In this document: piece after piece, positions 4,601-54,969 of the stretch
Position numbering within the stretch: the first letter of the stretch is position 1
Layout: each line of letters opens with the position of its first letter
Source: Stereum hirsutum FP-91666 SS1
Taxonomy: Eukaryota > Basidiomycota > Agaricomycetes > Russulales > Stereaceae
Length of the DNA: 64,000 bases
Assembly (NCBI RefSeq): GCF_000264905.1
Contig: NW_006763138.1
Coordinates: 1,376,584 to 1,440,583, forward strand
Direction: 5' to 3'
The notes under the pieces: generated by a model
What the model was told of the DNA's origin: nothing
Database searches by the model: none
What the model saw: only the letters and a program-made list of their open reading frames with translations
Program-made: the position numbers and the translations under genes

Positions 4601-6887
4601 TCAGTCGCTCGTTTCCGACCTGTCAAGCCTCCTGAGTCGCTCCTTTTCCTCGTACTCCTCAAGCCTCCTAGCGAGCCGCTCGTTCTGGTCGCGCAATTCC
4701 TCATTCTCGTCGCTCAACCGATCACGATCCCGTCGAACCTCCGTGTTCTCGGCCACAAGTGCTTCGTTCTGTGCTTGAACAGCCTCCATCTGCGACTCGT
4801 GCTGCGCAAGAAGAACATCGTGCTCCTCCCTGAGCCTCGTCATCTCGTTCACCATCTCTTCGAGCTCCATCATCGAATCCTCACTCCTGGTCCTCATCAG
4901 GAGTTCTTCACCTGCAAGAACCTCGTTCTCCTCCCGGAGATGCAAGATATATCTGACGCCTACAAACCGAAAGTAAAAACACGAGATTAGCACTCCAAAG
5001 CACTCACGTGGTGGAAAATAATAGAGGCAAAGGTGATTGTGAGAGCACGTACCTGCAGTGTACCACTCAACTTGCGGCGCCTTCTTACCCTTCTGGGGTG
5101 GAGGGTGAAACTCTTTCGGGAGAGTCTCTTGCAATTGAGTGAGCGCAGCCGAGTATGTGTCTCGCCAATCTTGCGCTCTATGTCGAGCCTTGTCCTTACG
5201 CTCCGTGTCAGTTTGTCGAGAATTGGCGCCACTACGATCGGGGGCCGGGGTGGCGTTGGTTTCGACACCGAGAGCTGCGCGACTTCTTGTGGCGCGAGTA
5301 GATCTAGCGGTTGGGGGTGCCGGGGCACCGTTTGTGTTGCGAGTAGGTCTGGTGGTTGCCGGTGCAGGAGTAATGTTTGTGTTGCGGGAGGTGGTACTCC
5401 TAGTATTCGTCCTGGTTCGAGGCTTCGGTGGAGTTTGAGTGAAAGTTCCTGTACGACGACGCTTGGTCCTGCGTTCTGTCTCTTCCAACTGATCGATAGT
5501 GACGTTTGAACCTGACGCGACAGGTGTTTCGGTGGTTTCCATCTCGCGCGCACGTTTTCTTGTGAAACGTCGAGGTGCTTCGCGGGATAGTGAGGGTGCT
5601 GGTGCAGGAGGAGGGGGCACGGGTGGACTGGTTCTCGTTTCGATGAAAGCTCGGCTGCCAGTACCAGAAAGAGAAGGGACCTCGAGTGTAGAATGAGCCC
5701 CAGCAGTTATCGTTGAGTGTGCGTCAGTCGAAGCGTGTCTATCAGAGCTGCGAGCTTCTAAGTTGAAAGACGGAAGAGCATGAGAACCAGAACCACGTGA
5801 TGCCAATTCTACTTCAAAGCGCATAGCCGCCTGGGAAACAGCATCGATGTGAGCAGGAGTGATAGTCAATCCCTCCTCGGAGGGACGGTCAGCCTCAGAT
5901 CGAGAGTGCAGACGGTTCGCAGGTGAAATCAAGACAGACGAATCGAGACGGCGCGCTTCGTAGTCCCAAGCATGATTGAGGCCGTTGTCTCTGTCATACA
6001 TAGAGGAATATGTGTTCCCAGGGAGTTGTGGAGGTGGTGTCCATGGTCGTCGGGATTCATCTTGAGGATTTTTCTTCCCGTATATATCGGCATAGGGATC
6101 GTCTGTACGGTGGAGATATAATGCAGTGTGGTGTGGTGTTGACGAGCTAGCGTGTCTAGGTGCATGAGAGGGACCAGCACGAGGGGAAGTTCGGTGTTCT
6201 CGAGAGCCGTGACGTGCTACAGATCTCGGGGGGTAGGGTGAAGCCCGAGCGTCATCAATTATTCGAGGGGACCTATTCACGAGTTCAGATGAAACAGTGG
6301 TTGTAGGACGGTCAACGGTGGGAGAGAAGTCCGGAGAGCGCATGGTTGAGCGTAGAGCAGAAGTCCGATTGAGGTTGGCTGAGTGCATTGGCATGGTTTG
6401 GATACCGGTGAAACTGTGAGAATAAGATGAAGTTGAGCCATTGGGAGACAAGGTTTGACGGAGATTGGAGGCACAGAGCCGTGGTTGAGAGCCAGTCTGG
6501 CGTGGGAACATCTGTGAGAGAGGCACACCTATGTGATTGTCCTTCCGACCCTATTAGTTCCCTTTCTTCATACCCAGATGGTCGCTGCATTGCAGCTTGT
6601 TGGGTTGTGTCCGGCGAGCCGGGTTGCTCAAGCTGGCTGCCCGCGTGGGGTCGCTCGTGGCGGAGTCTTGCATTCGGATCTGGCAAATAATGCCCATCGT
6701 CGTCACTGTCGGATCTGAAGAAATCAAACGGGACAGAAGACAAGGTATCAGACCAGGTATAGACGAGAAGAGACAGGTGAGATACATACTCAGAACGATA
6801 ATCAATATTTGGTGGTGTAGTGTCAGTTGGCGGGAATATTGCAGGCCTTAGCCTGAAAGATCGTTGGCTGGGGACGCGTTGTTCCAT
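4601..6887 (-). CDS. bHLH/coiled-coil protein (667 aa), probable transcription factor
   Basis: Four exons (6887-6790, 6714-6529, 6413-5053, 4959-4601) join to exactly 668 codons. The N-terminus has a SFRLRP motif similar to two neighbours, then an acidic SESDSDDDG stretch. The middle is Ser/Thr/Pro-rich and disordered, with a basic KRRRTG patch. Near residues 505-575 is a helix-loop-helix: a basic stretch ending in DKARHR, a helix ending TQLQETLP, a KGKK-containing loop, then EWYTAGVRYILHL. A long heptad coiled coil (LEEMVNEMTRLREEH and onward) runs to the C-terminus. A 93-base phase-1 intron splits the Gly codon of helix 2. Probable DNA-binding dimer in the nucleus; the domain call is by eye. 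The start is the first ATG of the exon with the LRP motif. The 6529/6413 join is the least certain, though the frame fits. Divergent from the next HLH gene. Confidence 0.7.
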
Positions 6888-10576: not shown

Positions 10577-12141
10577 ATGTCTTCCTCCATTCAGTAAGTG
10601 ACACTTAGTCCAACGCTTGCCTATCCAACTTGTCCTAACTTCTTTCTCGCGCGTTGCCTTGATAGACCCGACATGTTCACAGACCCGGTCGCTCTCTCGA
10701 CCCGGGGAAAGACCCGCAAACTCCCTTCCCAGACTGCCGATCCTTCGTCTTCCACCACGTCCACGCCATCCACGTCCACGTCATCCACACCCATCCCATT
10801 CGTGAAGCCGCGCCCGAAGGCTTCATCATCAAATATGACCCGTTATTCTCCACGATCCCGCGCCGGTAAATCCACTGGCCGCAAAAACAAGAAGAATACC
10901 AGCAGGCGGACCTGTCGATTGTGTGGACACGGCCCGTTCTCGAGAACCTCCGACTGTTGGCGACATATACGAAAATCGTGCCCACGAAACCCGGATGCCA
11001 AATCGAACCCGCTGAAGTGCGCGAAGTGCGGGAAACTTCTCTCGCGGCTGGACGCATTGCAGAGGCATCGCAAGTACTGCAGGGGTAGATCGGGGCAGAC
11101 TGGGAGACTGAGGAGGGCAGTCGCGACGCAGGCGCCTGTGGTGGTCGACGAGGGTGACAGTGACGAAGATAGCAGTCGGGAGGACGAGGACGAGGTGTCT
11201 GACGATGCGGCGAGTGGCGACCAGGTGGATTCAGAGTACGTGGATGATGGGGAGTCCATGGGCGACTACGGGAACTACGACGACGACCACGCTGAGGAAG
11301 AGGTACCCGAGAACAATGTGGCTGGCCACGCTGAAGGTCCCGAGGATGTCGAGGTCGACGATGCTGACACTAACCACGACGACGAATCCGACGCTGAAGA
11401 CGATGTCGATATCGTCCCTCAGGCTATTGCTGCCTCTGCCTTGCTCAATCTCCATAACGGTGTTCGCTCTTCTTCATCAGCTACATCCTACTCGTCTACC
11501 CCGACTATTCTCGCTACTTCTTCTTCCGCCGAGGATGGGTTCCCTCTCATCGCTGCTACTGGAGCTCTTGACCCTGTCACTGAACATTCTACTACTGGTG
11601 TAGCTGGTAAAGTATCGTCGCCTGTACTTTCTGCTAGCCTGCCGCAGTCTGCGTCAGTGGCAGCTTGTCCCTTTCCCTCTTACTCCGGTCAACGCGACGC
11701 TTCGTCTGTAAATGTCCCCGTCGTATTCGATGCTATGAGCCAGGGGAAATCTCACTCCTTGGGCAAGGGGGCGGATACGACTACTGCTGCAGGGCCCATC
11801 GACGTCGGTGGAGAGGTCGTTGTCGGTGAGTACAGTTTTGCGATATCTCTTTCTCCCCGTCGTTGTCACCGGCCCAGTATCTTACTGACTGATTATAATC
11901 CACTCATTCTTTCATTCTAGGTCAGCCAATTGAGGATCGCAACACAAGCTCAGGCAAACAGACTCCGACGGCGATGTCGACACCCCAGCCCGAGTCGGAT
12001 GTGGCTCAGCGCGAGCTGGACTTGGCTAAGGCTCAGGCTCAATTGCAAGCTCAGGCTGAGAAGCGTTTCACGGACTGGGACTGGTCCCCCGCTTTCCCCA
12101 CTCCCACTGATGACTCGGATTCGGACGCAGAAGACTATTAG
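10577..12141 (+). CDS. Paired C2HC zinc-finger protein A (465 aa)
   Basis: Exons 10577-10593, 10666-11825 and 11921-12141 give exactly 466 codons. The first exon is only 17 bases. A Ser/Thr-rich start and a basic stretch (RAGKSTGRKNKKN) precede the zinc module at residues 89-144 (10913-11080). Finger 1 is C-x2-C-x13-H-x4-C and contains CGHGPFSR. Finger 2 is C-x2-C-x12-H-x3-C and contains LSRLDALQRH. A long Asp/Glu-rich tract follows, then a Ser/Thr region, and the C-terminus has a short helix (LDLAKAQAQLQAQAEKR) and DWDW. The same module recurs at 20.6, 27, 36.6 and 37.6 kb. It probably binds DNA in the nucleus, but Cys as the fourth ligand makes it atypical and RNA or protein binding is possible. 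No HMG box or HLH is present. Confidence 0.72.
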
Positions 12142-14195
12142 ATGTCTGATATCGAGTGAGCGTCTGCGTTGTTTGATTCCGATGTGACTCTGTTGTGTGT
12201 ATCTTTTAGATGTCGGCGCTGCGATACTATGTTGTTTGTACGAGTATAACTGCCTGTTTGGCGGTGGAGGTTTTGTGTTTGTGTTGCTTGATGTGTTCTT
12301 TTGATTTCCTTAGTATCTCTCTAATATGCCTACGCTATGCTCTGTACATATATGCCATATCATACCCTATGCAGTCTCTTTTTTATCTCATCTACCCCGC
12401 CATGCCGTGGGAGCTGCTGAGCATAGTTTTTTGTGAATTAAGGTGCTGAGAAGTTGATGCGATGGTACAGAAGAAAAAATATTGCAACGTTTCGCCGTCA
12501 CAGTGCCGTTGTGCGCGAGGAAACGAAGCTGGTTAGGGCCCTCAGCTGTGTCTGGTGTTTTGCTTTCTCGCTAGTGGGACTAGGACCGTGGTTTTCTTTC
12601 ACTGGGTATAGGGAAGATATACGATGCTTTCGAGAAGTTCTCTTGAGCGAATGCTCAGTGCCAGTCAGTCGACAAACTTTCTCTGCTGGTTCCAATATCT
12701 CGTTCTACAGCGCAGCGATCATTTTCACTAAGCCCTTCGACGGCAATGACTGCACGTATGGTCAATGCTTAGCGAAGAACGTCTGCCGCTAGGCTAATCC
12801 CGAAATACAGACTCAAAGATCGAGGAAGACAAACGTTCTTCCTCACTGCTGCTGGGCCTCAAAAACGACGAGTGCAGCTTGCGTCCCTCGGAAACTTTTA
12901 CAGTGTTTCTCCTCTCGCGCTCACATTGCCGTAGACATCATCTCGCATGGTTCTGATGTAAAACTTACCTTGTCAACGGGTCCGGACATGTCTGCATGGC
13001 CGTAGTGTGGTCACAATAAACGATCATTGGAGTTTCAGAAGATCGTGCGCACATAGGGCTGCGCCATGAGCTTGTGTACCAAGACGTCTTCGTCGTGTTG
13101 GGCTCGATCAGAAAGCACGTAAGACTGAGGGAGTATATAGGGGTGGATACCAAAAGGATAATAAAGGGCAGTGATGTGTTGATGGCACCTCATTCGACAG
13201 CCTAAGTCTTCAATACACCAGCAGGGGGGCATGCGTGGCGTCGATGCAGGGGGAATTTAGCGGGAGAACACGCCTGAATTTATGGAATACAAATCGTAGT
13301 ATACATAGTATCATCATGGGCCACATAGGTTATGCGAACCTTGGCTGCTGTTTTAGCGAGGATTGCCTACAGATGAGTCGATGGGGATACTACACAAAGG
13401 GCCGCACATACAATCAGCATGAACGATCCTGCTCCAACCACTGTCAACGAACCAAGTCAAATTCGAAAAGCTTCAGCAAAAGATTAATGATCGTCTCAGC
13501 ACGATGCTGTTCTATAGGCTATATTCAGCACATGTCCAAGGATCGGCACGCCGATTGGTGCCATGGACGAGCGAGGGTTGCCCCGCCGCAGAGTTGCCTT
13601 GGATAATTCAGAGTATAGTCAGGTTTTCGAGTAAAATTCCGTCAAGCCAGCAAATTAGTCGGGTACAAAGCAAAGACCAGACAATATCTTCCAAGATCCA
13701 AACTCGAGGGTGAAGGGACAAAGAAAAGGCTTCGCGCGTCGGTGGCGACCACTTGCTGCAATTTCCTTTTTCGGACACGAGCGGGAGTGAGCGAGCAGCT
13801 TGCCACCCGCGCGCGCCTGCTCCAACTTTTCCCCCATCCACCATCACCCTGCATTGCCACCTCAGCAATCTTCATTGGCATCGTATAGCGTACGCAATAC
13901 CAGCACATAATTTATGGGTATATGCTGACTTTTGTGCCCAAAAACGAATAGATATTGCCACAGACCCTGTTGAAAACCGAGAATGAATCGAGCAGGTTAG
14001 TCTTCATTTATTCGAATATTTCGACAGGCGTCCTTTTGTTTTGCCACTGTATGGGAATGGCATATAGTGCGCTATAATAAGTTTGTGCGGCGTAATGAGC
14101 GCTGGTGCTGGCAGAGCGTGTCCAAGAAGCATCTTGTGTCGTGCCAACCCCAGCGCGAGCACTCGGACGAGCCCTGCCTGCTCTTCTTCCCAACC
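12142..14195. other. Intergenic, no intact gene
   Basis: No frame is supported as a gene. A minus-strand frame near 12965-13150 has a weak resemblance (TPMIVYCD) to the RNase H region of copia retrotransposons, too weak to call. A short gene could be hidden but none is evident. The 3' part holds the leader of NOT2. Confidence 0.4.
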
Positions 14196-16881
14196 ATGTT
14201 CCATCCATCCTTCCCCGCTAACTCCCGTCCCTTCTTTCCAGGACAACCCCCACAAAGACCACCATCACTCGGGCCCGCATCGCTACACTCACATCTCCCT
14301 AATCCAAACTCCCTGAACCCTTCCCAACAATCCCACCCAAACGCCCTGCAAGGTGGCTTCCGCGCCGGACCCTATGCCTCCCACCCCACCAACTATGCCA
14401 TGCCACCACGGAACAACATGAACGTCAACGTCGGTCTCGCTGGCGGAGCGCTTGGCGGCGGCGGACTGGGTAGCGCGGGGTTGGGTGGTATGCCTGGCTA
14501 TCCGGGCTCGATGGGAGCAGGTGCAGGAGGGATGGGAATGAGGCCTCAGCCTTCGCCGGGGTTTCCACAGCAGAGAGGTGCTGGTCAGGCCTTCCCGTTC
14601 AACACCGGGCTCGGACAACAGCAACCACACGGCCTACACCAGCAGCAACAGTCGAATCAGCAGCAGCACGGCGGCAATCCTGGACTACCGCCACATCTCC
14701 AAGGCCCGACGGCACAGAATCCGAACATCAACGCGTCGAATGCTGCCTCGTCGGGTGCGGCGTCGGATGTTGGACTGGACCCAAGTGACTTTCCTGCGCT
14801 AGGATCGACACCCGCCTCCGTACACGCCAGCGCGCTTAACTCGGGACTCGCAACTCCGGGAACGGCAAATGGGAGTTACGCGTCGCAGGCTGGGACAACC
14901 CCGGGTAGTGGTGTGCAGGGCGGACAAGGGCAGACAAATGGACGGGAGAGGGATCAAGGGAGAGATTTTGGGCCGGACGATTTTCCAGCGCTCGGCGGAG
15001 GTCAGTCGACGCAGCAACAACAACAACAGGTTCAGCAGGCTGGTCAACAAGATCATTCACACCCGCATCCACCCGGTTTGAATGGTGTGCACACGGCGGA
15101 GAGGCAGAATTCGTTAGGAATGGGTGGACAGCAGCAGCAGCCGGGATTGTTGAATTTGGGACCGGGAGGTAGAGGCCAGCAGGCGTTGCAGAGCGAGTCG
15201 GAAAAGCAGAGGGTGTGTTTCTCTTCACTCTTTTTTCTTCTTCTCTGTGTCCCCAATCAGCTCTTTATTCCATCCATCCATACACCTTTGGATTTCTTCC
15301 TTCTTCGTTCGTTCGTCTCTTCCCTCCTCCACCATATTTTCCTCTCGCGTGATCTTCGGATCGCTCCTTGTTTTTCTTCAAATTATGATACACAACTTAG
15401 GCCGCGTCTTTGAAATTCCCGCGGTTTTTCTTGCCCCGCACTCTTACTAACCCAACTCCACAGAATTACGCGCTCAAGCTCAACTCAGCATCGCATGCTG
15501 CTTGGAACAACCCATCCAACGGACCCTCAGGCACGAATCCCCTCAACCCCCCACCATCGCAAACACCCGCACCCGTCGTGGGAGGCGCAGGCTTCCCCGG
15601 CACACTATCCTCTCTCCAAAACGGCTCGCATCCTCCCACATCGAACCAAGCACCTCAATCGCAACCAAACGCACAAAACCAAAATAATCACCTAGGCGGC
15701 CCGCCGGGTGTTCCTCCCCCTCCATCCCAACAAGTACCACAGCCGCAACAGCCACAACCGTCACAACAAGTACCACCGCAGCAGGCAACGCAAGGACCAC
15801 CGCAGCCTCCAGCAACATCACACACGCCAGGTCCGGCACAACATTTCGCTCAGGACCAAGCACAACAGCAGGGACAGCAACAGCAAAGGCCTGGGACGAC
15901 GGTGAATAATGTGAATGTGGTGCCGCAGACCCCGGCGCAGCAGGTGCTCGTCTCTGCAGCGGATCGGTGGGGCCTGTTAGGACTGTTGGCGATGATCAAG
16001 AATGCGGATTTGGATAGGGGGCTGCTTAGCGTAGGTACAGATTTGGGGACAATGGGGTTGGATATGCAGGCTCAGGGGTACGTTTCTGTCTATTCTGTTT
16101 TTCTTTTTTCCTCATAATTAGTGATTTCTCTCTTTGCGCGTATTGACGGCGGGTGCTATTTCTTGACCTTAGGAACCTATACTCGACGTTCATCACGCCT
16201 TGGGCAGATTCATCAGCGGCACATACTGTTGAACCGGATTTTCATCTTCCGACGTGCTATAACGTGCAACCTCCGCCACCGGGTCCAAGTAAAGCAGCCG
16301 CATTCAGCGACGAGACGTTGTTCTTTATGTTCTATTCGAGTCCGAGGGACGCACTCCAGGAAGTAGCCGCACAAGAGCTGTAAGTCTTGCTTGCTTTCGT
16401 ATATCGCTTATCGTTTATATCGAAAACTATCCATGCATATGCTCACGACGCTCTGTACAGGTATAACCGCAACTGGCGCTACCACAAAGACCTTCGTCTG
16501 TGGCTCACCAAAGAATCCGGAACTTCTCCCTCGCAGAAAGTCGCTGGCGGCGAGCACGGAACGTACACCTTTTGGGATCCCGATGGCTGGGGGAAAGAGC
16601 GCAAGGATATGACCGTGCTCTATTCTGACCTCGAGGAGAAGAACGCACCGGTATTCGCGCCTGGAGCGGCACTGACGCTGAACGGACCTGCGGGCGCACA
16701 GCAGCAGCAGGGACAGGCTGGTGTCATCGGAGCACAGGCAGGTGCGGGTGGGATGCAACAAGGAGGACAGGGGCAGATGCAGGGTCAGCAGGGAGGGATG
16801 GGTGGGCTTGGTGGCGTTGGGGGTATGATGGCGATGGGACAGCGGGGCGCGTTCCAGGGAGTTGGGATGGCGGCGATGTAA
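14196..16881 (+). CDS. NOT2: CCR4-NOT complex subunit NOT2 (752 aa)
   Basis: Scaffold subunit of the CCR4-NOT deadenylase complex, which shortens mRNA poly(A) tails and tunes transcription; NOT2 pairs with the NOT3/5 subunit through the C-terminal NOT box. Exons 14196-15212, 15464-16077, 16173-16379 and 16461-16881 give exactly 753 codons. The N-terminal region is Gly/Gln-rich and carries two NOT2-type SDFPALG / DDFPALGG motifs. A Pro/Gln linker follows. The NOT box starts at DRWGLLGLLAMIK and includes LDRGLLSVGTDL, NLYSTFITPWAD, the segment FFMFYSSPRDALQEVAAQEL and the YNRNWRYHKDLRLWLTK region. It ends with a Gly/Gln/Met tail. The start at 14196 was chosen because upstream in-frame sequence looks like leader. 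It is one of the few conserved housekeeping genes in a region of fast-evolving regulators. Confidence 0.93.
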
Positions 16882-18100: not shown

Positions 18101-21100
18101 TCACTCCCCCTCGGCGTGTGTTTTCGAGTTCGCATCTTCAGTCTGAGATTCTGCGACTGGAGTCGGTACGATCACGACGGTCTTATCGACCTCGGTCTCT
18201 GCGTCGGATGCGTCGTCCGCCATACTACTTGGCGGAGGACTCGCAGAAGGGCTCGCGGGCGGACTATCAGGAAGAACGACAGCGTCGTGGATAGTAGGTG
18301 AAGAACTGGCTGCAACGCTAGGTGCAGGGCTTGCGCTCGGACTGGGACTGTTCCGAGCGGAACGGGGCTTGGCATTGGGGACCGGAGCAGGTGGGGGAGA
18401 TTGGCCTTGAGCTTGAGGACGAGCGGAGGAGGCGGAGATTGACGATAATCGCTGGCGCAGTCTGTCGTGATCCCGTTTGAGTTGCTCGATCTCGAGACTG
18501 ATAGTCTCGCCCAGTTCGAGGTCTTGGTTCCTCTTGCTGTGCAAGTCCTCGAGTTCGGAGCGCAGATGATTGATGACGTTTCGTGCTAAACAAAAATGCG
18601 CATACATTTTCAGTTTTAGTAACCTGAGGGAGAATCAAGAAAGGTGAGGACCAACGTACCACTTTTCAGGATAGGCAAATAGCATGTTGGATGCTCCAAG
18701 TAATGCTCATGGAACTGTCGAAATTCTTCAGGTATCCTCTCCCCCAACAATCGCTGCACGTAGGGTTCGTCCCTGCGACTAGTGGCCCAATGCACGCGTA
18801 TCGCCTGCAAACGCTGTTGGTGCTTCAACGACGCCGAAGCGAGCACGTCCTTCATCACGTCGTCTTGCGTGCGCGGGCGTGAGCGCATGGACTGAGAGAG
18901 CGATGAAGTCGGGGTATGCGAGTTGGAAGTGGTGCGCTGAGACGACTCAGATGCTGGAGAATGCGAAGAAGTACGCGCGGGAGAAGGTTGAAAACGAACG
19001 GGTTCGGGTTGGGGTTCGGGCGGGAGTAAAGCTGCCATTAACGGTTGCGATGGATGCGAAATCGAAGTCGAAGAAGGCGATGCATGCGCATGCGAAGGTT
19101 TGGGCGAAGACGAAGGAACGGGCTGAAGAGGATGTACAGGAGGCGAAGGGGGTCGAGCGGGGGTAGTGTTTTTGTGGGTTGATCCCCATAAAACGGGAGA
19201 GAAAGATGGTGGGCCGAACGTCGAAAGTCTAGGGGGAGGAGGCGATTGCTGACCAGTTCCTGGAGCGAGGGGCGAGGCGGTCGACTGCGAAAGAGGTCGT
19301 GACAATCTCGGTACGGCCCCGGACATGTAAGATTGTCCCCGTGCCCCAGCACTTAGAGCCAGTTGCGCGAAGGAAGGAGGAGCGTGAAGGGGTTGGGAAG
19401 AGCTGGCGACAGAATTGGGACGTGTGTCTGCTTCAGCAACGTCCCCTGAAGCAGGCCTGCTCGAAGAAGGAGTGGCATTCCTCGTGAACACAGAATGGCG
19501 CCTCCGTAAGTCTTCGACTATGCTCCCAGCTTCCGGCTGGGCTTGAGGAACTGGGGGGTTCTGTGCTGGTGGTACAAAAGGCGCAGGCGCAATGACCGGG
19601 ACCGACGGCTTCGACCTGGTCCTACGAGTCTTCGCTGGCGCGGCCCCGTTGTCCATATGGACGGTCGGAAGCGTGATCCCTCCTCCGTTACTGGAACTTG
19701 CGTTAGGCGGAGGAGGCGGTGGTGGTGGTGGTGGTGGAATGGCCGACCTCGAGGGCTCGGACATACGCTGTCGTTTCCGAAGTTCTACAACCGGTTCGCC
19801 GGTAGGAGCACTACGTTTTCCCCCAGACGGCTGCTCAAGCGCATCTTCGGGGAATGAGACACTCCATACTGGATTCTCGTGCACAGTGATTCTACGAGGA
19901 TGAGGATATTTAAGTTCCGGGACGGGTTGAGCTTTGCCTTTAGTTGCCGAAGCAGCTGCACCCTTCTTCGGCTCTGGCCGTCTGGGTCGGTAAACGTAGC
20001 CAGGATACTTCCGAAGGTGGTCCTCCTTGGCTTGCTCGGATTGCAATTTCCATGGCCGTTTCTCGTGCTCAGCCATGGCGGCCCATCGATCAGCTACAAG
20101 ATATTCGGTTTAAATTTTTCCAAACGACGGTATGCGAGAACTGAGATTACGCACCAATCGCTCTCGAAAGATTGGCTTGAGTATCGGTAACACGATCAGT
20201 GTGGATACAGTGAGATCGGAAGAGCATGAATGCGTTAGGTGGTCGAGGGATATGCCCCGGACGCGCTCGGCTCCCTCGTCTTTTCGTGGGAGGTGTTGGT
20301 GAGCGCGGGAGGTTCGGAGGACCGTACGTAGGTGAAGGCGGGAAACGCGGCATATAAAAGATTTCCTCCTCGATCACAGGAGGCTCGACTGGTTCCGTAT
20401 ACATAGATGGAGTGACGACCTGGTCGAAAACGAACGAGGTAGGTGGGGGAGGTGGTGCTGTTGAAATCCAAGGACGAATCAGCAAGTCTGATCTCCTGCG
20501 AGGAACCTTACATAAATGAGAGAATACTCGGACTGACCTCGATGTATTTTCTCAGGTTTGCTAGGTATAGGAAGTTTATTCTTCACCCGTACCGCACAGT
20601 AATTCCAGTGCCCTCGCAGATCACTTAGAGGGCCTTTGATGATGCTTTGGCAGAACTGGCAGATATGCGTACCCTTCCTAGCGACTGGGTTATTGGGGCA
20701 CCGTTCGCGCATATGTCGACGACAGTCACCCGATCGAAGAAAGGGTGGATGATTACAAAACAAGCAGGTGAGCGATTCGCTCGTTTCCCAGTCCTTCGTA
20801 TCCACACCACTTGGCGGTGGCGGATGTCCGTCTGGCACGTCGTCGTCGATCTCGTCCATATCATCAACCTCTGATTCACCACTATCGTGTTGCGGAAAGA
20901 CAGCGATGATGGGGCGATCCAAAGGATTGTCGATTTCCATATCGTTCGCAGTCAAGCGCACGTGTGGCGGTGGCGAAGGTATGTCCGAAATCGGACGATC
21001 GGTGCTCGGGCCGGCTCTATTGTTCGCTCCTGTTTGGAGTCGAACATGCGGATCTTCGACGCTTTGAGTCGGCGCCGACGACGACAAAGGCGCTGAAGCG

Positions 21101-21449
21101 AAGGGATCATGTCGTCGATCTGCGCTCGCCGACGACGAAGGCGCTGCTGGAGACTGAGGGCTCGAAGAGGCGGGGTCCTTCGCAGCAGCAACAGCGAGCG
21201 GCTGCGAGGGCGGCTCCAAGCCCTGCGAAGCGCTAAAAAGAACAATAGAGAACTGACATCAGGAACGGGATGATTTGTCGAAACGCATCATGCCACGCAG
21301 ATGCGAAAACTTCATACGTACGCTCGTTGTTGTGCAGATAAGGCAGGATCAGTATCTACGTCCATACTGTCATCGATTTTCGATTTCTTGCTGAGCTCTT
21401 CGCCAGCGCCAGTAGCGACGCCTTGAGCAGTGTCCGATTCTCGAGACAT
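18101..21449 (-). CDS. Zinc-finger + HMG-box + HLH-like regulator B (1024 aa)
   Basis: Five exons (21449-21322, 21232-20538, 20487-20155, 20093-18660, 18585-18101) join to exactly 1025 codons. Residues 199-255 are a paired zinc module: CNHPPFLRSGDCRRH...C, then C-x2-C with LRGHWNYCAVR. An HMG box spans about residues 353-425 (HIPRPPNAFMLFR ... YPGYVYRPRRPE), of the mating-type/Rox1-like fungal kind, interrupted by a 61-base phase-1 intron. After a Pro/Ser-rich linker, residues about 825-900 look like an HLH: LLGERIPEEF, loop, LPILKSARNVINHL, then a coiled coil. A 74-base phase-1 intron splits the Ala of that second helix. The basic region before the HLH is weak, so the HMG box is the likely DNA binder and the HLH a dimer interface. 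Probable nuclear transcription factor. This domain combination is not one I recognise. Confidence 0.75.
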
Positions 21450-21577
21450 TACAGTAGAGACCTGAGACGGTGCGGGCGGTATGGAGGGGATGGTGGTGCG
21501 GACGAGGGTTCTCGATTGTTTCCGAAGATGGACGCGAGGGCGCGGAAGAAAGGGCTTCCCGGACAGGAAGGGGGGCC

Positions 21578-21585
21578 CTTATATA
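21578..21585 (-). promoter_or_regulatory. TATA box of regulator B
   Basis: TATATAAG on the minus strand, about 130 bases before the start codon at 21449. Confidence 0.6.
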
Positions 21586-22746
21586 TCAGGACAATGCGGG
21601 CACAGATCCAGTATCACATCATCCGCGTAGCAACAAGTGGGTGCTAACTTATTTGGTATGAACAATACGTGTTTCCTGCCGTTCCGCGGATCGCATTGGG
21701 TATCGCGTGTCCCACATGAGCACACAAGGCCACTATTTCAGCTTACTAAATAGAAGACACATACCTTTTCGAGACTCGCTTCCTCGCGCCCTGCAGGGAA
21801 AGGCACGATTTTTCAAACAAGGCGTGTATATGTGCTCGTTCAGACTCCGTTTTATCCTTGCCAATCCGGTGCGACGCGCGCTCTTTCTCCCGGAGAAAAC
21901 GGGCGGGGGATATCGATAATACGGAATCCGAGACCTCCTCGAGTGGCGAGTCGCAGATACACAGAAGATAACTGAGCGATTCGATCTGATGAGAAGCGCA
22001 AAACTTTCGTCCAAAAGCGTAACAAAAGGGTGACCCTGAGTCGTGGTCCGCCAAGGATCTTGCCCCGGCCAGACTTCCTGATGCGCATTCGAGTCTGCGC
22101 CGATGACAGGATCATTAGCCCTTGTCTCAACCCCAACAGAGACACAGCACATATTTGTTGCACTGGAAAGAGTCGCGTATAGTACATGATACAGATGCTA
22201 TGCCGACGTCGTGCAGGACCAGGCGAAGACATTGACGTGGGTATAGATTTGCCCAGCCGGGCTCGAAGGGGATTCGGCAAGCATTGTGGGAAATGATGAC
22301 AAATAAATCTTCCAACGGCTCGGTACTCAACGAGGCCGGATCCTTGCCGGATCCGATGGCCGATACTCCTGAGCTTAATTATAAGCTGTGGCGTTGCGAG
22401 TCAGCGTCGCAAGACATCATTTTGCCAGGTTTCGGTGGAAGAATGCTCTTGTCCGTCTGGCCTCATCCTGAGAGCCTGACAGAGAGACAGCTTCGAGGGT
22501 CATGCGTCCGATATCTTCCTAATCCGTATAACAAGGACCTCGAGAATGAGCACAGAGCACAGCGCGCCACCCAGATTGCTATGGCACGAGAAGAAAAAGA
22601 ATGCATATCATAGTAGTAGTAGTACTATACAATTAGTACTCATATGGTTCACACTCGAGAGGAGGCGGCATGGATAGGTCTACAAGAAGAAGATAAAACA
22701 AGAAAACGTGCATTCTACAAATCAGCGTACAACTCTGTTCAATTCC
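21586..22746. other. Intergenic, no supported gene
   Basis: Upstream region of regulator B and downstream region of regulator C. A plus-strand frame at 22284-22613 (109 aa) has no recognisable motif and no promoter evidence. A short TAG repeat lies near 22612-22626. Confidence 0.45.
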
Positions 22747-25700
22747 CTAGTTCGACGCAGCCTTCTCTCCTTCGGCCTCCACGAGCTGCTTCTCCAGATC
22801 AGCGTGCACGTTTTGCATCCCCTCGAACTTGGACTGGAGCGAATCTGTCCAGTTCTTGTCCTTGTCTCGCTCTGCTTGGAGCCGTTTGACCTGAGACATC
22901 AAGCTCTCGATATAATCCCGAGCTAGCAAAGTAAGGATAATGATCAGCCGGAAACGAAAGAGTAGATGAAGAAAACAGTAACGTACTGCTTGTCAAGAGC
23001 GAGATCTTCGACGTCGTATCAACCCCGACGGGCAACACCTCCCTAAGCTGCTTCTCTGCAGTCTCCACCTCCTGGCTCTTACCAATCACCAACCTCATTT
23101 TGGCATCGGCATCGGCATCAACATTGACATGCGGCATCTCCTTCTCCCTCTCCATCAACTCGTCCACCTCTCCATCCTCGCTCTCCGGCCCCTCATCATC
23201 ACTCTGCAGTTCATCGTTCTCCGGCACATCACCTCCCTCCGTACCACCCATAATCGAATCACGAGCATACTTGGGCACGCTACCCGCAGGCGTCTTCCTC
23301 TTCCCCGCCTTATCCGAACAATCGATGACGCCGAACAAGGGAGGCGTAGGATCCGGCCTGATAGGTGGCAAAGGCTCCATGTTCCCGAAGAGGAGGGGTC
23401 CACCTCGTTCCGGGGCGTTAGCGTGAAGAGGCCTCGGCGCAGCGACGATATTGCCATTAGTATCGTCTTTCGGACCTGCATTGGGACCGGGAGCAGGACT
23501 GGCATGGGCGCTCGTCCCGTTTTGTTGGGCTTGCTGGGTGGCGGGACTGCCGGAGGTAGCGTGCATGTCGGCATCCGGCGCTGCACCAGCCTTGCTGGGC
23601 GTCTTCTCATGGTGAGGGCTCATATAACCGTCGCGCTCGCGCTCACTGGGAGGGGCATTGTCGAGTGTCATTTGCTGGAACGACGTCTCCATAGACGGGG
23701 AATACTCCTTCGACCGTGCCCGTGCTACAACGGCCGCTGCCATCGGCGGTGTGGATGGATGCTGATATTGAGGGGGAGGGGGAGGAGGGGGAGGAATGAC
23801 CATAGGTGCTGGGCTCGGAACGGAGGGAGTCGCTTGCTTCGAGGTCGGCTCACTGTCCACCGCCATATCCCCACCCGCCGCCGCTCTCGCTTCCCTCTCC
23901 CTCTCCTTCTCGGCCTTCAACGCCACCTGCGCCGCCACCCAATCCTTCGCCAGGATCCTCGGCGGAGGTGCAGGCACGACCATATCCATCACAGACTCAT
24001 AATCCGCCGTTCGACCGACAGGTCTCTTGGGTTCCGTCTTTCTGCGTGGCCGAATTGGTTTGGGAACGGGGATGGTGATGTAGGGCTGGATGATCAGCTC
24101 GGGAGGAGGACCTTCGGGTTCGGGGGTAGAAGGCGAGGAGGGAGAGCCTGCGAAATCCTCGGGGTTGAGGTTCTGCGACGAGGAGCGGTCGCGGTAGTAG
24201 TTGCCTGGTTCGCCAGGAGCGGAGTTGACTGCTGTGGCGCCCTTGCTGCCGGCGGGCTTCTTCGTTGGTTGATACCTGTACTCCGGATTGTTGCGCATAT
24301 GTTCTGCTTTCGCCTCTGCTGCTTTGGCGTCCCAGAAAGCCCTCTCGGATGGCGTGAGCGCTCTCCATTTCTCGGCTAGTAGCAATGATAAAGAACAAGA
24401 AATCAGCATCAATACGGAAAACTTACCCTTAGCCAAAGAGCGAAGACCCACGTAAAAAAACAGGAGAACGAACAAAAAAAGAAGACAAGAAACGGGACGA
24501 AAAGCAGTACCAAGAAAGAAATAAAAAGACTCACAGATGACAGTATGAATCTGCATCTCCTGCACCAGTGCCTTCTCCTCCCTGCTCATCCTCGCATACT
24601 CCCCTTGCATAAAGTCCTTCCTAAACAAGATGAACGAATTCGCCGGCCTCTTAATATACCCATCCGGCCTCTCCTTGTCCTGGCCCCTCTTCCGCTTCTT
24701 CGCCGTCGGCTGGTACATCAGGAACTCTTGGCCTATGGGTCCGTCCTCGTTGTTGTACGGCGCATTATGGTACTGCGGCGCGACGAACGCTTCGTTGTGT
24801 GATTGGGCATGGAAGGCAGGAGCGGCGTTGGGGTCTTGAAGTCGATCCATAACATCGTCGTCAATGACCATAGTACCATTTACGGGCTGTGGAACCGAGA
24901 CCATGCCTCCCGTGTTCTGTGGCACCAGCACCGACATCGTCCCTCCAACATCCCCCGGCGAGTGAGCACTGGGAGATCTCCTCTGAGGCTGCACCACATC
25001 AGCACCAGAATCAGCAGAGTTGCTATCCGCGCTCAGACGGCGAGCAGTAGGACGAGGGCGCGGACGGAGGCGAGGACGAGGAGGCTCAGGCTCAGTGTGG
25101 GTTGTGACCGGGGGACTGGGGACGGGAGGAGTCGGGGGAGGTGCACTGGCGGTGGCGGTGGCGGGCGTGGGAGGGGCGGGCGCATCAGCTTTGGCCTTGG
25201 TGGCTTGGGCTTGGGCTTGTGCTGGAGGTTGTGGAGGGGGATAGACGTAAGGTTGGTATTGGGGGTGCTGATTGGGATAGAGCTGGGGATAAGGATACTG
25301 AGCAGAAGCGGGAATGGGAGCGCCATAGGTGTACGGGTAGGCGTAGGGATGTCCTGCGGCGTTGGGTGGCGGTCGAGCCGCGGCGGAATAAGAGTAAGGA
25401 TACTGGAGTTTGTCGGAGAGGAAGACTATGATAGCAAAGATATCGTCAGCACCACGGACGACAACCATTGCAACTTATCATAAAAGAACACGAGAATGTC
25501 AAAGGAAAATAGAGAGATTGCTCACCGAAGGGCGCGTTCTTGTTCCTCGAGGACCTACGCGTGGATGACTTGAATTCCGCAGGACGTTCGATGAGCACGA
25601 CGTCCGAATCTGATCCATCGCTCTCCTGCCCTGCGGCCTCATTAGCTTCCTGTGCAGGCGGAGGAGGCTGCTTGTCCACCTCCACACGAGGAGCCTCAGG

Positions 25701-27794
25701 CTCGTCCGTCTCCATAGGGTTGGAGGCGACATCGTCGACAGTCGCTTCCTCTTCCTGGATCTCGTCCTCCTCTTCCTCCTCCTCGTCTTCACTCTCGAGC
25801 TCATCCTCCGATGCCGTCTCGACCTCCGTCTCTCCCTCGTCCATATCGACGTCTCCATCTGCGTGGTTGCTGCCGGCTTCACTACTCCCATGTTTGCGAT
25901 GAACGGGTACCTTTCTCTTCTTCTTCGTAATTGACAACCTCTTGCTCTTCTTCCCCTTCTTCTTCTCAGCCTTCTCCTTGCCCTTGCCCTTCGCCTTCAC
26001 GCTCTCCTTCTCCTTCCCCTTGCTATCCGGCTTCTTGGTCACGATCTCTTTCTCCTTCTCGGTCTGCTTCGCCTTTTCGGTCGTCTCCGTCTGCCCCTTC
26101 CCTTGTTCCTTGCCATTCCCCTCCAACGACTCCTTACCCTTATTCGAAGACCGAGTAGTCATTCCGTTCGCATTCGCAGTGACGCCACCCATAACCGCAG
26201 GCAAAGTCGCATTGAGGACGGTCGTACCTGATGGTGGTGGCCTAACCCAAATCCCAGTCCCAGTCCCGCTCGCCACCGCATCCTTATTCGTCGTCGTGCT
26301 CACACCACTCTTCGCAACATTCCTCGTCGCCATCGCACTCGGCCCAGTCCCTACACCCATCGCTCCCCTGCCCATCATCCCGACCATCAACTTCCCCCCC
26401 GGCCCAATCTTCAAAATCGGCTCCTTATCCACATACACCTTCGGCACCGGCCTTCCCAAACTGAGACGAATCGCACATTTCTCCCAGTGCCACTGCAGAT
26501 TGTCGAGCGCGTTGTCGTATTGGGCACCACAGAACTCGCAGCGGTAGGTGTAGTCTTTGGTCTTGGTGGACGGCGCGGTAGCTGGTTGGGAGGCGGTGGC
26601 GTTGGCGTTGGGGACTTGGGGTGGCGTGGCGTTCGTGTTGGTATTGGTATTGGTATTGGCTGCGGGGGTGGGTCGAGAGGTAGTAGCGACGACGACGGGT
26701 TGGGCCATGTAGGGGTGGGAGGGTTGAGGAAGGAACTGAACGTTTTGAGCGTTCGTGTTTTGGTGGTGAGAGGTTAACTGGTTCGGTTGTTGTAGTTGGG
26801 AACGGGTGGGATAGTAGTGCTCGCGATAATACGCCCCCGACGCGGTCTGTGGTGCAGGCTGATAGGGCTGGCGGTAATACGAACTGGGTTTGGAAGCGTT
26901 CTGTTGTTCGGGGTTGGCGGGCTCATCAGGGGGAGGGGAGGAAGAATCACGATCGTCATGGGAGACTTTGGTGCGTTTGCGTCTGGGAGGCTTGTTGGCC
27001 GGGTCATCAGGAGGGTTGGGGTCAGCGACGAGACTGGGACAGTAGTAGTTCGCGTGGCGGCGGAGGTCGGGTTTGCGCCTGAAGGGAGCGTGGTCACATT
27101 TGGTGCAAATGAAGGTTTCGGGTACGCCTTGAGCATTGACTTGGGGCTGAGACTGCGCAGAAGGTTGAGACGCGTACGAGGTTGAGGGGGCTGTGGGATG
27201 TGGTTGGCGCTGGACATCGATCGGAATGATAGAGGTCGTTCTGGACTGGGTGGCGGGAGTGGGAGCACCAGCGCGTCCTGGAACGTTGCTATCGTTGGGT
27301 TGAGCGGAAGACGCGCCGCTTATGCTGGCCTTACCGAAATCCATTGGAGGAGCCCATTGCCCATCGTCGTCATCGCTCTCATAGTAGTCGTCGTCAGAGT
27401 AGTAATATCCGTAATCTTCGTCAGAGTAGTAGTCGTAGTCGTCGTAGTCGGAGTCGGACGCGTACTGCGAATCGTACTCTGCTGGGGCGAACGCGCTGGG
27501 CGGGGCTGGAGGAGGTTCGGGGGCAGGTACGAAGTCGCGGACGGGGCTGTGAAAAAAAACACGTAAGCGCCGACCAACAAGAGGGAAGGTAGACAAGGAA
27601 CGTTACCGAAGCGTGAAGGAAGGGCCTGTGGGCGCTGGTGGCTCTGGCTCCGCCTCCGGTGGTGGTGACGACGGTGGCGAAGGGGGTTCAGGCGGGGGCA
27701 CGGGCGACAGCTTGGGGATCGATGGGAGATCAGCTCGAGGGCTGTCAGCCATCTCGACGTCGCCATCGCCGTCGCCGTCTTTGCTGGAGGGCAT
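22747..27794 (-). CDS. Zinc-finger + HMG-box + HLH-like regulator C (1554 aa)
   Basis: Five exons (27794-27607, 27546-25526, 25425-24535, 24375-22987, 22922-22747) join to exactly 1555 codons. The N-terminus has an SFTLRPV motif whose Arg codon is split by a phase-2 intron, followed by a striking Asp/Tyr-rich tract. Finger 1 (residues 210-232) reads CTKCDHAPFRRKPDLRRH. Finger 2 (399-420) ends LQWHWEKCAIR. They are about 170 residues apart instead of adjacent. A Lys-rich stretch and a Glu-rich stretch follow. The HMG box is at about 992-1065 (YIKRPANSFILFRKDF ... YRYQP) with a 159-base phase-1 intron. The C-terminus is HLH-like: AEKQLREVLP, loop, ISLLTSTRDYIESLMSQVKR, with a 64-base phase-1 intron in the Thr codon of helix 2, then a coiled coil. 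No basic region precedes the HLH. Paralogue of regulator B. Open antisense frames here are shadows. Confidence 0.75.
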
Positions 27795-28685: not shown

Positions 28686-31600
28686 CTACGTCCTCTGATC
28701 CTGACCAAAATTCGTCACCTCCACCAACCCACCATCCGCACCCCTCCTCCTCTTCCTCCCCGAACCCGAACTAGGCCCAACCCCAGCTCCAGCCCCAGTC
28801 TCATTTTCCCCATTTTCCACCATACCCTCCCCATGCTCCGCATTTTCCATCCCCACGTCCTGTCTAGACCTCTTTCTCTTCTTCCTCGGGCTTTCGTTGC
28901 CCACCGTAGACGAAGAGGTCGAAATTTGAGGTTCAACTTCCCTCCCAGTTCTTCCAGTTCTCTCGGCCTCATTTTCTCCTCGTACCGCGCGCTGATCATC
29001 CGTGCGACCATCGACTATCCGCGTCTCTGCCTGTTGAATGGCAGAACTCCGCGTAACCTCTGGTGTACGTATGGATCCATGAATGCTCGAAGTTGAATTT
29101 GATCCTCCAGGAAGCGCCACCTGGTTCTGTCCGACTGTAACAGGCTGACGAGCTTGAGACTCGAGAAGTGAACCTGTAGGGACCGGGTACGATGGCCTCG
29201 GCGCGTACAATGGAACAGAGTTACGGTGCGGGTGTGCTTGAAGTGGAAGTTGACGGTCAGGCTGTGGCTGGGGCTGAGGCTGAGGTTGTAAGTGAGCGTT
29301 GAGATGGGATAAAAGTGGGGAGTGGGACTGTGGTTGAGGACGAGGGCGAGGAACAATTTGAGGAAGAGTCTCGATGGTAGAAGGTCGCGCGACCTCTGGC
29401 GTACGTATGCGTATGGATCCATGAACGTTCGAAGTTGATCTTGGTACTTCAGCCTGAGGAAGTACCACCCGATTCTGCCCGTGCCCGACGTCGACTCTCG
29501 CTCTCGGAGGTTGACGATGTCGAGACTGGGAAAGCGTCGATGGACCCGGAATTAAACCGGCAGGGACGGGGTACGATGGTCTGGGCGCGTACAATGGAAT
29601 AGAGTGCGGCTGGGCTTGTTGAAGTTGACGGACAGGCTGAGGCTGAGGCTGAGGCTGAGGCTGAGGCTGAGGCTGGGGCTGTAAGTGGACGTTAAGATGA
29701 GCTAAAAACGCGGAATGGAATCCAGGTCGAGGTTGATGCGTAATCTGAGGTGGAGGTGGAGGTGGTGGAGGAGGATGTGGATACGTATTCGAAGTGGAGG
29801 CCTGAGTGAACTGCATATGCATCGCTGGAACAGAAGGATGTGGCTGATGTTGAACATGATTCCGATTCTGAGGGTGCTGTCCACCTTGAAGACGACGAAG
29901 TTCATCCACAGAACGAGCATGACTCTGCACGAATTCTCCAGGCCATATTTCGTGCTCTGCCAGCTCGATATCTTGCGCGCCACCCGGTGCGTGCCACCCA
30001 CTCACACTCGATTGTCGCTGCTGTTGCTGTTGCGGTCCTTGTAGTTGTGGGTATCGTGGTTGCGGCTGTTGTCGTTGTGGCGCAGGCGCAGGCGCATATC
30101 CAGCAGGTACCCGAGAGTTCGCCGAGGATGGAATGTTCGTCAACGCATCGGTGGGATGAAGCGCAACAGGTGGACGATATATTGTTTGTGCAAGAGCCGG
30201 AGGAAGAGAATGAGCAGTCATAGCAGATTGTCCAGGTTCAAGTTGCGGTGCAGGGTATGCGTTTAATACTGGCACAGTGCGAGATCGTCGAGCTATAGGT
30301 GGTAGTATCTCGGATCGTGACTGGGGCGCAGATGACTCGGAGCCAGAAACAGGACTGAGTCCATTCTGAGGTAATATCTGAGTTCGCGGGCGTAGTAGCC
30401 ACATCCTTTCACCTGCAAACACAGGGACAGATCTAGGATCAAAGACTCCGGCCGGCTGAGGATGGGGATAACCATGGCCAGACGGAGTTGGTACAGTTGG
30501 TCCGAGTGACACCAGATTCTGGTTCGATCCCGTGTTAAGCTGAGCCTGATGCAGTCTGCCAGGCATAGCAGGCCCTGTAAGAGTCGAACGAGATTGACCG
30601 TGACCATGACTGTGAACAAACTGTGCCAGAACGGGTTGTCTAAGGCCAGATTGCACCGACATCTGAGAACGATTCTGATGCTGAACATTCTGGGTCGGTC
30701 CTCTTGTGAGCTGAGACGGAGGTAAGAGAGGAGGAATGAAAGGAGGTGGATTGGGATTGACGCCGGGAACGGTAGAGACGGGGGCGGAGGCGACAGGACA
30801 AGAAGAACGAGTATGTTCAGGAGCAGGACTGAAGACGAAAGCAGGTGCACGTTCGGAGCGACCAGCAGCAGGACCAGCAGCAATATTGCGAGACGAACCA
30901 TGACCACTTGGAGCAAGATGATTCGTCGTCGTTGGCCCTTGACCGGTCATTATGGGATACGAAACCGGTGGACCAACTTGACTCGCGGGAGGCAAAGATC
31001 CAGATAGTCCGACCGCCCGAAGGAAATCCTCAGTTTTACGCCGAATCAAAGAGTCCCAAACCATCTTATTTCGGTCGCTAAAGCAATGAGAGTGTACGAT
31101 CAGCAACTACACTCAACGTTATAATGCAGAAGGAGTGAAGGTCTGAACGTACCTTTGAGTGGAATTACTGTCGTTTAACAAAGATTCGTCGAAGGGAGGA
31201 GCAGGACCAGTAGGAGCGGCGGCACTCGTCCCACGTCCAGCCTCAGGACCCCCGCGATTGAGACTAGCAACAGAACCAAGACCAGGGACAACGACGTCAC
31301 CAGAATCGGAAGGTCCTTGCTCCTCACCACCTTCCCCATCCTCGTCGTCACTAATAATGATAGGATCCTCCGCAACATCTCCCTTCGCATTTGATGTTGC
31401 CTTCGTCGTTCCTGGTGATGGCGGCTGCTCCGGTATTACAAGCTCTTCCTGCGACTCTTTGTTCGGACTAGACTCTAAAGCTGGGAAGTTTCCTTGCTGA
31501 ATGGTTGGGGTTGCTGCTGGATGGGAAGTCGGAACTGAGACTGGGGTTATTGATACTGCAATGTCTTTCGTGGTCGACGACTCCCCGCGTGCGTACGCAT

Positions 31601-53335: not shown

Positions 53336-54969
53336 ATGGTTCATCCAAGACTCAAGCTCGTATCCAAGTCCCGGTCCCAGTCCCGTGCTACCTCAATCTC
53401 CCGCTCCGCCTCATCCAGCCCCATCCCCGACGACAAAGATGACACTTCATCTATATTTGTCTCAGAACACGCGCACGAAGTCAAGTCCCAGTCCCAGTCC
53501 CAGTCCCGTGCTACCTCAATCTCCCACTCCGCCTCATCCAACCCCACCCCCGACGACAAAGACGACACTTCATCTACATCTGCCTCGAAGCAAGTGCACG
53601 AAGAAATCCGACTTCCCTCCTTCGCTACTCTCGATAAGTCTCTGGACCATGCATCCCCGCCTCCTCATCCCTTGATTTGGTTGAACCTGCCGGAGGGGAG
53701 TGTGGAATGGGATGAGGGTTCGAGGCTGAGGCGTAGGTATGATCCGGAACGCGATAATGCGGGGGCGATGTATGTTATACCTCCGCTTAGGACGTCCACG
53801 GTGGACCCTACATCGGATCCCCGCATCGGTGGGCAGGAAGAAATGTCGAATGGTGGTGAAGATTCGGGTGTGGCGAACATGTCCGAGGCCAGACGCCAGG
53901 GTAATCTCAATGGTCCGTGTGCCGAGGCGCCAGCGGTAGAGTGTGGTATGTCTATCTTCGTATATTTCCTGTGCGATATAAGTATTGACACTATGAACAA
54001 TCCAAGGTGTTAAAAGGAGCCGAGAACCAGAGGATGGCCCACAAGATTTCACTACGCCGTCCACGTCCACATCGTCGTCTTCGACCGGCGATCCCCTGCA
54101 GCAGGGGCTCCGACTCATCGCAGGTTGTATCGACCTTTATCTATCCGAGCCACCTCCATCACTGTCGAAGTCTCTGCGTCAATTCACTACTGGTAATTCA
54201 CGCATTCCCGATCCCTCTTCGACACCTATTGCTGTACCGGTCCTCCCATCTTCGGCTTTGGGAAGCAAATCTACCACAGAGAAGGCTCGAGCGAGGGCCG
54301 CCAAGCCCAAAAACGGCACCGAGAAAGAGAACGGGGCCGGAGAGAAAGAGAAAGGGAAGGGGAAGGGGATGGGGAAGGAAAAGGGGAAGAAGAAAGAGAA
54401 AGAGAACAATGTCAATGGTAATGGCGAGAAAGAGAACGATCCGGACCACGTCAAAGTCCCCAAACCGCTCAACTCGTACATGCTATTCCGTATAGACCTC
54501 GGTGCAAAGATCGCGAAGAGTCCGCTTTCGAAGGGGTTGAATCTGAACCAAAGGTACATTTTGCCGGGGATAGGTGTGTTTGAATCGTTCACCTTTTGTG
54601 GTCCTTCATGCTATATTCTGACTATATTGCTTCGAACTGTTTCGTCACGCCACAGCCGCCTGTTGGAATCAACTCCCCGGACACGAAAGAGCGCATTGGG
54701 AACAGAAGGCTCAGGCAGTGGCTGCCGCTCATGCGATCAAGTATCCGGGGTATAAGTATAAATCTGAACCGGACAACAGGCAAGGCAGAAAACGCAAAAG
54801 ATCGAAGGGGCTGCTGGACCCGGAGAAGGAGCGGGCAGCCTCACGACTCGTTGGGTTGGTGATGCGGGGCATCGAAGGCGAGGAGGGATTGGAGCGGATC
54901 GATGCTGAGGCTGCTGTGGCTGGCGACGACGGTGATACACTCGACTTGAAGGATTTGTTTGCTGAGTAG
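53336..54969 (+). CDS. HMG-box protein E (496 aa), probable transcription factor
   Basis: Exons 53336-53945, 54007-54573 and 54656-54969 sum to exactly 497 codons. Exon 1 opens with two copies of a 41-residue Ser-rich repeat, each with SQSRATSIS and PDDKDDTSS. Exon 2 has a long charged Lys/Glu-rich stretch (KEKGKGKGMGKEKGKKKEKE) that leads straight into the HMG box at residues about 351-431: VKVPKPLNSYMLFRIDLG, then WNQLPGHERAHWEQKAQ and IKYPGYKYKSE. The box is split by an 82-base phase-1 intron at the position used by the HMG boxes of regulators B and C. After a basic patch (GRKRKRSK) the acidic C-terminus ends DLKDLFAE. Binds DNA in the nucleus, probably in the mating-type/Rox1-like HMG class. 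No zinc finger or HLH. A broken copy of this gene lies at 57.7-58.0 kb. Confidence 0.8.
53368..53605 (+). repeat. In-frame tandem repeat, 123-base period
   Basis: Two copies in exon 1 of HMG-box gene E, offset by exactly 123 bases (41 codons), each holding the CCCGTGCTACCTCAATCTCC block and a GACGACAAAGA block. A third, partial copy is in the broken HMG fragment near 57690. Confidence 0.85.

What the first reader, a model, noticed from the sequence alone, without database searches (positions are those of the whole stretch)
18101..27794. Regulators that join paired zinc fingers, an HMG box and an HLH-like coiled coil in one protein
Two adjacent genes each encode, in the same order, C2HC-type zinc fingers, a fungal HMG box and a C-terminal HLH-like segment followed by a coiled coil. 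Exon joins sum to whole codons through all three parts (1025 and 1555 codons), so they are single genes rather than neighbours run together. I know of no described transcription-factor family with this three-part architecture. It may be a new class of combinatorial regulator.
Basis: partly seen in the sequence, partly recalled or inferred. Interest (0 to 1): 0.85.

Follow-up and report, generated by a model that had tools for sequence, protein, structure and literature searches.

The report
Three-module fungal transcription-factor gene pair
Two neighbouring genes of the fungus Stereum hirsutum each appear to fuse a zinc-finger pair, an HMG box and a helix-loop-helix coiled coil into one protein, beside genes that carry the same modules singly, so the spot looks like a place where gene regulators were assembled from spare parts.

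Summary
Genes A (21449-18101, -) and B (27794-22747, -) each read as five exons in one frame with the same intron phases. Each carries two C2HC fingers, an HMG box over Pfam's cut-off and a C-terminal HLH-like segment with a heptad coiled coil. The HLH label is good for B (26.6 bits against the genome's own bHLH profile, 0 of 250 shuffles as high) and fails by profile for A (1.9 bits, 21 of 250 as high). A's support is the shared intron codon and the intron-anchored alignment. The genome is Stereum hirsutum FP-91666 SS1. Three protein searches found no other three-module protein, but their reach is short. Best reading: combinatorial transcription factors, fingers and HMG box binding DNA, HLH-zipper dimerising. 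No transcript was available, and whether A and B stem from one fused ancestor is open: their HMG boxes are sisters in 2% of bootstrap trees, though this is not rejected (p-AU 0.20). New variant of a known kind.

The parts
18101..21449 (-). Gene A, 5 exons, 1024 aa (1014 aa with the alternative intron 2): finger pair, HMG box, HLH-like coiled coil
20596..20766 (-). A: two C2HC fingers in one exon (C-x2-C-x13-H-x4-C and C-x2-C-x13-H-x3-C)
   Evidence: pattern; alignment; model
19996..20251 (-). A: HMG box (residues 354-418), split by intron 20094-20154 at a phase-1 codon
   Evidence: Pfam PF00505 36.2 bits; coordinates worked out from the exon map
18431..18732 (-). A: HLH-like helix 2 and coiled coil (limits approximate), split by intron 18586-18659 at a phase-1 codon
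   Evidence: not supported by the bHLH profile
22747..27794 (-). Gene B, 5 exons, 1554 aa: two fingers far apart, HMG box, HLH-zipper
27039..27107 (-). B: first C2HC finger
26475..26540 (-). B: second C2HC finger, about 166 aa after the first
24275..24655 (-). B: HMG box (residues 994-1067), split by intron 24376-24534 at a phase-1 codon
   Evidence: Pfam PF00505 42.3 bits; coordinates from the exon map
22750..23062 (-). B: HLH-zipper without a basic region (limits approximate), split by intron 22923-22986 at a phase-1 codon
34932..38822 (+). Gene C, annotated STEHIDRAFT_157659 (1196 aa): two C2HC finger pairs (36615-36776 and 37626-37790), no HMG box seen
10598..12141 (+). Gene D: one C2HC finger pair (10913-11080), no HMG box seen (start is that of the open frame)
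54456..54969 (+). Gene E (3' part): HMG box only, intron 54574-54655 at the same phase-1 codon as in A and B
   Evidence: Pfam 31.5 bits; junction; stop
4601..6550 (-). Gene F (3' part): HLH-like segment and long coiled coil, intron 4960-5052 at the same phase-1 codon
8384..9485 (+). Gene G, 4 exons, 299 aa: basic stretch and HLH-zipper-like segment, intron 9298-9369 at the same phase-1 codon

Best explanation
A and B are two single genes for combinatorial transcription factors. SHOWN by sequence: each joins two C2HC fingers, an HMG box and a C-terminal helical segment in one spliced frame; B's segment is an HLH-zipper without a basic region, A's a diverged relative of it. INFERRED: fingers and HMG box bind neighbouring DNA sites (the HMG box bending DNA), long linkers let them reach, and the HLH-zipper dimerises, perhaps A with B or with F or G, instead of contacting DNA. 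INFERRED and less sure: one fused ancestor duplicated in tandem to give A and B, in a neighbourhood where finger-only, HMG-only and HLH-only genes arose by module loss or served as module donors.
For: Continuous frame, same intron phases and module order. Codon usage best in the proposed frame in 10 of 10 exons. A against B by BLASTP: HMG E 4e-11, finger 2 E 7e-7, finger 1 E 6e-6. HMG box over cut-off in A and B and E. Finger ligands all kept. Genome-wide finger-pair search: 5 of the 10 rows at E<0.01, the query itself included, lie in this 64-kb window, 0.14% of the genome. The HLH segments of F and G as queries matched only themselves at E<=10. Own-genome bHLH profile: B 26.6, G 11.6, F 7.7 bits, with 0 of 250 shuffles of each as high. 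The register set by the intron alone is the best of 15 in 8 of 8 comparisons of A, B, F, G with bHLH genes L022 and L026; A-B scored 37 with 0 of 20000 shuffles as high. Same intron codon and phase in L022, L026, L032. Heptad enrichment p 0.0004 in A, 0 of 5000 in B.
Against: No transcript. A's HLH fails the profile (1.9 bits, 21 of its 250 shuffles as high), and one of A's shuffles also reaches F's 7.7 bits. Pfam's HLH cut-off is not met in B, and coiled-coil models score higher there. A against L026 is weak (p 0.022), and B is nearly as close to L026 (score 32) as to A (37). HMG boxes of A and B are sisters in only 2% of 200 bootstrap trees, though a clade is not rejected (p-AU 0.20); the five finger pairs of the window form one group in 0 of 200 bootstrap trees. 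Searches for A and B found no public model of either although gene C's is in the database; a model outside 563-1792 or 855-2720 aa would have been missed. DNA binding and dimerisation are untested.
Confidence: 0.65

Rival explanations
1. A and B were fused independently from local single-module genes (convergent fusion), not duplicated from one fused ancestor.
For: Single-module genes lie on both sides. HMG boxes of A and B are sisters in 2% of bootstrap trees. The HMG and HLH introns also occur in unfused genes (L063; L022, L026, L032), so sharing them proves nothing about fusion. B's HLH is nearly as close to L026 as to A's. B's fingers lie about 166 aa apart, A's adjoin.
Against: Same order, same number of exons, same phases also for introns 1 and 2, adjacent genes on one strand; the A-B HLH score (37) exceeds A-F, A-G, B-F and B-G (8 to 17); a clade of the two HMG boxes is not rejected.
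Confidence: 0.25
2. The C-terminal segment is an ordinary coiled coil and the HLH resemblance is a chance effect of helical periodicity.
For: Pfam's HLH cut-off is missed and coiled-coil models score higher in B; A fails the bHLH profile. Heptad patterns alone raise scores.
Against: B scores 26.6 bits over helix 1 end, loop, helix 2 and zipper, with 0 of 250 shuffles as high. The intron-set register is highest in 8 of 8 comparisons, above registers 3, 4 and 7 residues away. Intron codon and phase are shared with real bHLH genes.
Confidence: 0.15
3. The domains belong to separate neighbouring genes, run together by the reader.
For: No public full-length model of A or B was found; the acceptor of A's intron 2 is unsure.
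Against: The finger and HMG open frames overlap at the junction in both genes (20479-20551 and 25446-25474), leaving little room for two transcription units; the introns inside the HMG box and the HLH segment are shared with other genes.
Confidence: 0.08

Closest known systems
MATA_HMG-type fungal HMG-box regulators (the names Pcc1, Prf1, Ste11 are recalled)
   Same: A's box is closest to such long HMG-box proteins (43% over 30% of the searched stretch to a Favolaschia protein; 10 of the 11 hits are fungal, one is from a tick); HMG-box intron codon shared with the genome's L063
   Different: 0 of the 11 proteins carries a C2HC or C2H2 finger by pattern scan or an HLH match by profile
YABBY and GCNA proteins
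   Same: Zinc finger, disorder and an HMG box in one protein (passages of PMC5098910)
   Different: C2C2 finger, two-helix HMG box, a protease in GCNA. No YABBY or SprT match in A or B at E<=1
bHLH-zipper factors
   Same: Helix 1 end, loop, helix 2 and zipper in B; helix-2 intron codon shared with three of the genome's 12 bHLH loci
   Different: B lacks the basic region; A is not recognised by the profile; both carry two further modules
Finger-pair genes elsewhere in this genome (L039, L041, L042, L043; more distant L044, L046, L047)
   Same: A tandem pair of similar fingers in S/T-rich open frames
   Different: None lies at an HMG place, a survey that missed the boxes of A and E and so is incomplete; some of the distant ones end in His instead of Cys

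Membership tests
HMG box (PF00505) | Score over the curated cut-off along the whole box | tested here: met
   A 36.2 bits, B 42.3 bits, cut-off 25.4
MATA_HMG subfamily | Falls with MATA_HMG boxes in a tree | tested here: inconclusive
   Trees of 19 and 18 boxes with no well-supported branch
C2H2 zinc finger (PF00096) | Two Cys and two His ligands, score over cut-off | tested here: not met
   Ligands are C2HC; B 10.6 bits, A no row, cut-off 25.2; nearest is gene C pair 1 with 24.6 bits
C2H2-like beta-beta-alpha fold | Two strands and a helix holding the ligands | tested here: inconclusive
   Model pLDDT 77.7, H18-28, E38-41, E48-51, H53-68; the first 20 Foldseek ranks are zinc-finger proteins, but E 0.1 to 3.5 and TM about 0.3
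bHLH (PF00010) | Helix-loop-helix score | tested here: inconclusive
   B 13.3 bits against cut-off 20.7, A no row; B 26.6, A 1.9 against the own-genome profile
bHLH (PF00010) | Basic DNA-contacting region before helix 1 | tested here: not met
   B aligns to the own-genome profile only from position 18; the basic part is missing
YABBY / GCNA | YABBY domain or SprT-like protease, with C2C2 finger | tested here: not met
   No such family among rows at E<=1 for A and B; fingers are C2HC

The most novel reading that the evidence does not exclude
The locus is a live nursery of transcription factors: in 64 kb, finger, HMG and HLH modules occur singly (C, D; E; F, G) and fused in all three (A, B), so that products of one cluster could cross-dimerise through related HLH-zippers and form a self-contained combinatorial network made by local duplication and module shuffling.
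Probability: 0.3. Interest if true: 0.7.

Novelty: new variant of a known kind. Interest (0 to 1): 0.5.

Why it matters
Three different DNA-binding-type modules in one transcription factor are unusual (recalled, not surveyed). Here fused and single-module genes sit side by side, so the order of module gain and loss could be read from related Russulales genomes, and whether linked HLH-zippers pair preferentially could be tested in one cluster.

Tried and rejected
A (residues 190-445): 1849 candidates, 11 hits, all HMG-box proteins. B (985-1080): 60 candidates, no hit. Gene C finger pair: 10 candidates, 1 hit, gene C itself. The method needs shared five-residue words and a length window, so absence of relatives is weak evidence.

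HMG trees (19 rows; 18 rows with L063 corrected and L005 left out) and a tree of 12 finger pairs have no well-supported branch. PDB sequence searches with the HLH segments of B and G gave nothing significant: for B the best is a designed protein at E 0.051 and MYC2 comes at 0.69; for G, MYC is best at 0.47. At the 18 other HMG places, no finger pair or HLH match was seen nearby (best E 0.22 and 1.3); flanks were 0.5-1.5 kb (10 kb for one cluster), an HLH split by an intron could be missed, and itself missed the split boxes of A and E. Eight paper searches showed no three-module fungal factor in their listings; some lists were cut (15 of 73, 15 of 80), and only passages of three papers were read. 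HLH and HMG segments were not sent for structure prediction, because they cross introns and the tool takes letters that the DNA gives in one frame. A link to mating was considered (HMG boxes serve sex in fungi, passage of PMC3730723) and left open.

Full report
WHAT WAS CHECKED. The window is contig C8:1376584-1440583 of a 46-Mb genome in 38 contigs. Gene C is identical over the searched stretch to STEHIDRAFT_157659 of Stereum hirsutum FP-91666 SS1, on a contig of the same length, 2072374 bases; the strain belongs to Russulales, Agaricomycetes.

GENE STRUCTURE. Codon usage trained on 4539 codons of other loci prefers the proposed frame in 10 of 10 exons. For A's second intron three in-frame choices exist; the 80-nt one holds a branch-like site and gives 1014 aa. 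At the finger-HMG junction the two open frames overlap in both genes. No transcript evidence was available. The searches for A and B returned no public model of either, although gene C's model is in the database; models outside the length windows of the searches would be missed.

FINGERS. Each gene has two C2HC fingers. In A they adjoin; in B about 166 aa lie between them. Pfam does not recognise them in A or B, but the pairs of A, B (joined by hand), C (two) and D keep 16 invariant columns including all eight ligands. Closest to Pfam's C2H2 model is gene C's first pair with 24.6 bits against 25.2. A model of A's pair from four rows (pLDDT 77.7) has a helix in each finger and a strand pair in the second; the first 20 Foldseek ranks are zinc-finger proteins, none significant. 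A genome-wide search with gene C's first pair gave 17 rows at E<=1; of the 10 at E<0.01, the query included, five lie in this window. Finger pairs elsewhere (L039, L041, L042, L043, and weaker L044, L046, L047) sit in S/T-rich frames that coincide with no HMG place.

HMG BOX. Over the Pfam cut-off in A and B and in a third gene of the window, E. A phase-1 intron splits the box in the same codon, with two residues between that codon and a conserved Trp, in A, B, E and L063 on another contig, so this intron is not a mark of the fusion.

HLH-LIKE SEGMENT. In A, B, F and G a phase-1 intron splits a codon that is followed by two residues and then Tyr/Val-Ile of helix 2. The same codon and phase occur in L026, L022 (GC-AG intron, read by eye) and L032, 3 of the 12 bHLH loci looked at. 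Of the other nine, L024, L029 and L031 appear to have an intron a few residues later and the rest none there (read by eye). A profile from nine of the 12 loci gave B 26.6, G 11.6, F 7.7 and A 1.9 bits. Of the 250 shuffles made of each protein, 0 reached the score for B, G and F, and 21 did for A; one shuffle of A reached F's 7.7. With the register set by the intron alone, register 0 was the best of 15 in 8 of 8 comparisons of A, B, F, G with L022 and L026. The pair scores of A were 37 with B (0 of 20000 shuffles as high), 14 with L022 (p 0.0026) and 6 with L026 (p 0.022); B scored 32 with L026 (p 0.0001). Heptad enrichment: p 0.0004 (A), 0 of 5000 (B), 0.0022 (G), 0.0042 (F). B's match starts after the basic region, so dimerisation is likelier than DNA contact for this part (inference).

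CONTEXT. On both sides lie genes with the modules singly: D (fingers), C (two finger pairs), E (HMG), F and G (HLH-like, F with a long coiled coil). F and G as queries matched only themselves in the genome. At the 18 other HMG places found no finger pair or HLH match was seen within the flanks held; that survey is a lower bound, since it missed the boxes of A and E, which an intron splits. Two readings fit: one fused ancestor that duplicated and partly lost modules, or repeated local fusion. The HMG tree joins A and B in 2% of bootstrap trees but does not reject it (p-AU 0.20); the finger tree groups the window's pairs in 0 of 200 bootstrap trees and has no firm branch.

MECHANISM. Shown: module content and order. 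Inferred from the families: fingers and HMG box bind DNA, the HLH-zipper dimerises, disordered linkers join them. Partners among A, B, F and G are a guess.

KNOWN KINDS. Zinc finger plus HMG box in one protein exists in GCNA and YABBY proteins (passages of PMC5098910; PMC7230965), with a different finger and a two-helix box. In Podospora the extra domains of HMG-box proteins in the table passage seen are DUF1898, SAM, SWIRM with amine oxidase, and SprT-like (PMC3730723, passages). No three-module protein was found in the searches named, whose reach is limited. I call it a new variant of a known kind (a multi-domain transcription factor), not a new class.

Noticed in passing
G000:C14:526000-535999 (locus L067): Three HMG-box matches lie within about 8 kb (L060, L004, L061), a second HMG cluster, without finger-pair or HLH matches in the stretch.
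   Followed up: partly
window 55858-56556 and 58942-59625, - strand: Two similar open frames (a duplicate pair by eye) without a Pfam match at E<=0.1.
   Followed up: no
window 14000-16881, + strand: A NOT2/NOT3/NOT5 C-terminal domain gene (CCR4-NOT subunit) sits between genes D and A; E 8.4e-15.
   Followed up: no
window 28689-34329, - strand: Long proline- and glutamine-rich open frames between B and C without a Pfam match at E<=0.1; possibly one disordered protein.
   Followed up: no
L022, C5:2081450: A bHLH gene with what reads as a GC-AG intron at the conserved helix-2 codon.
   Followed up: partly
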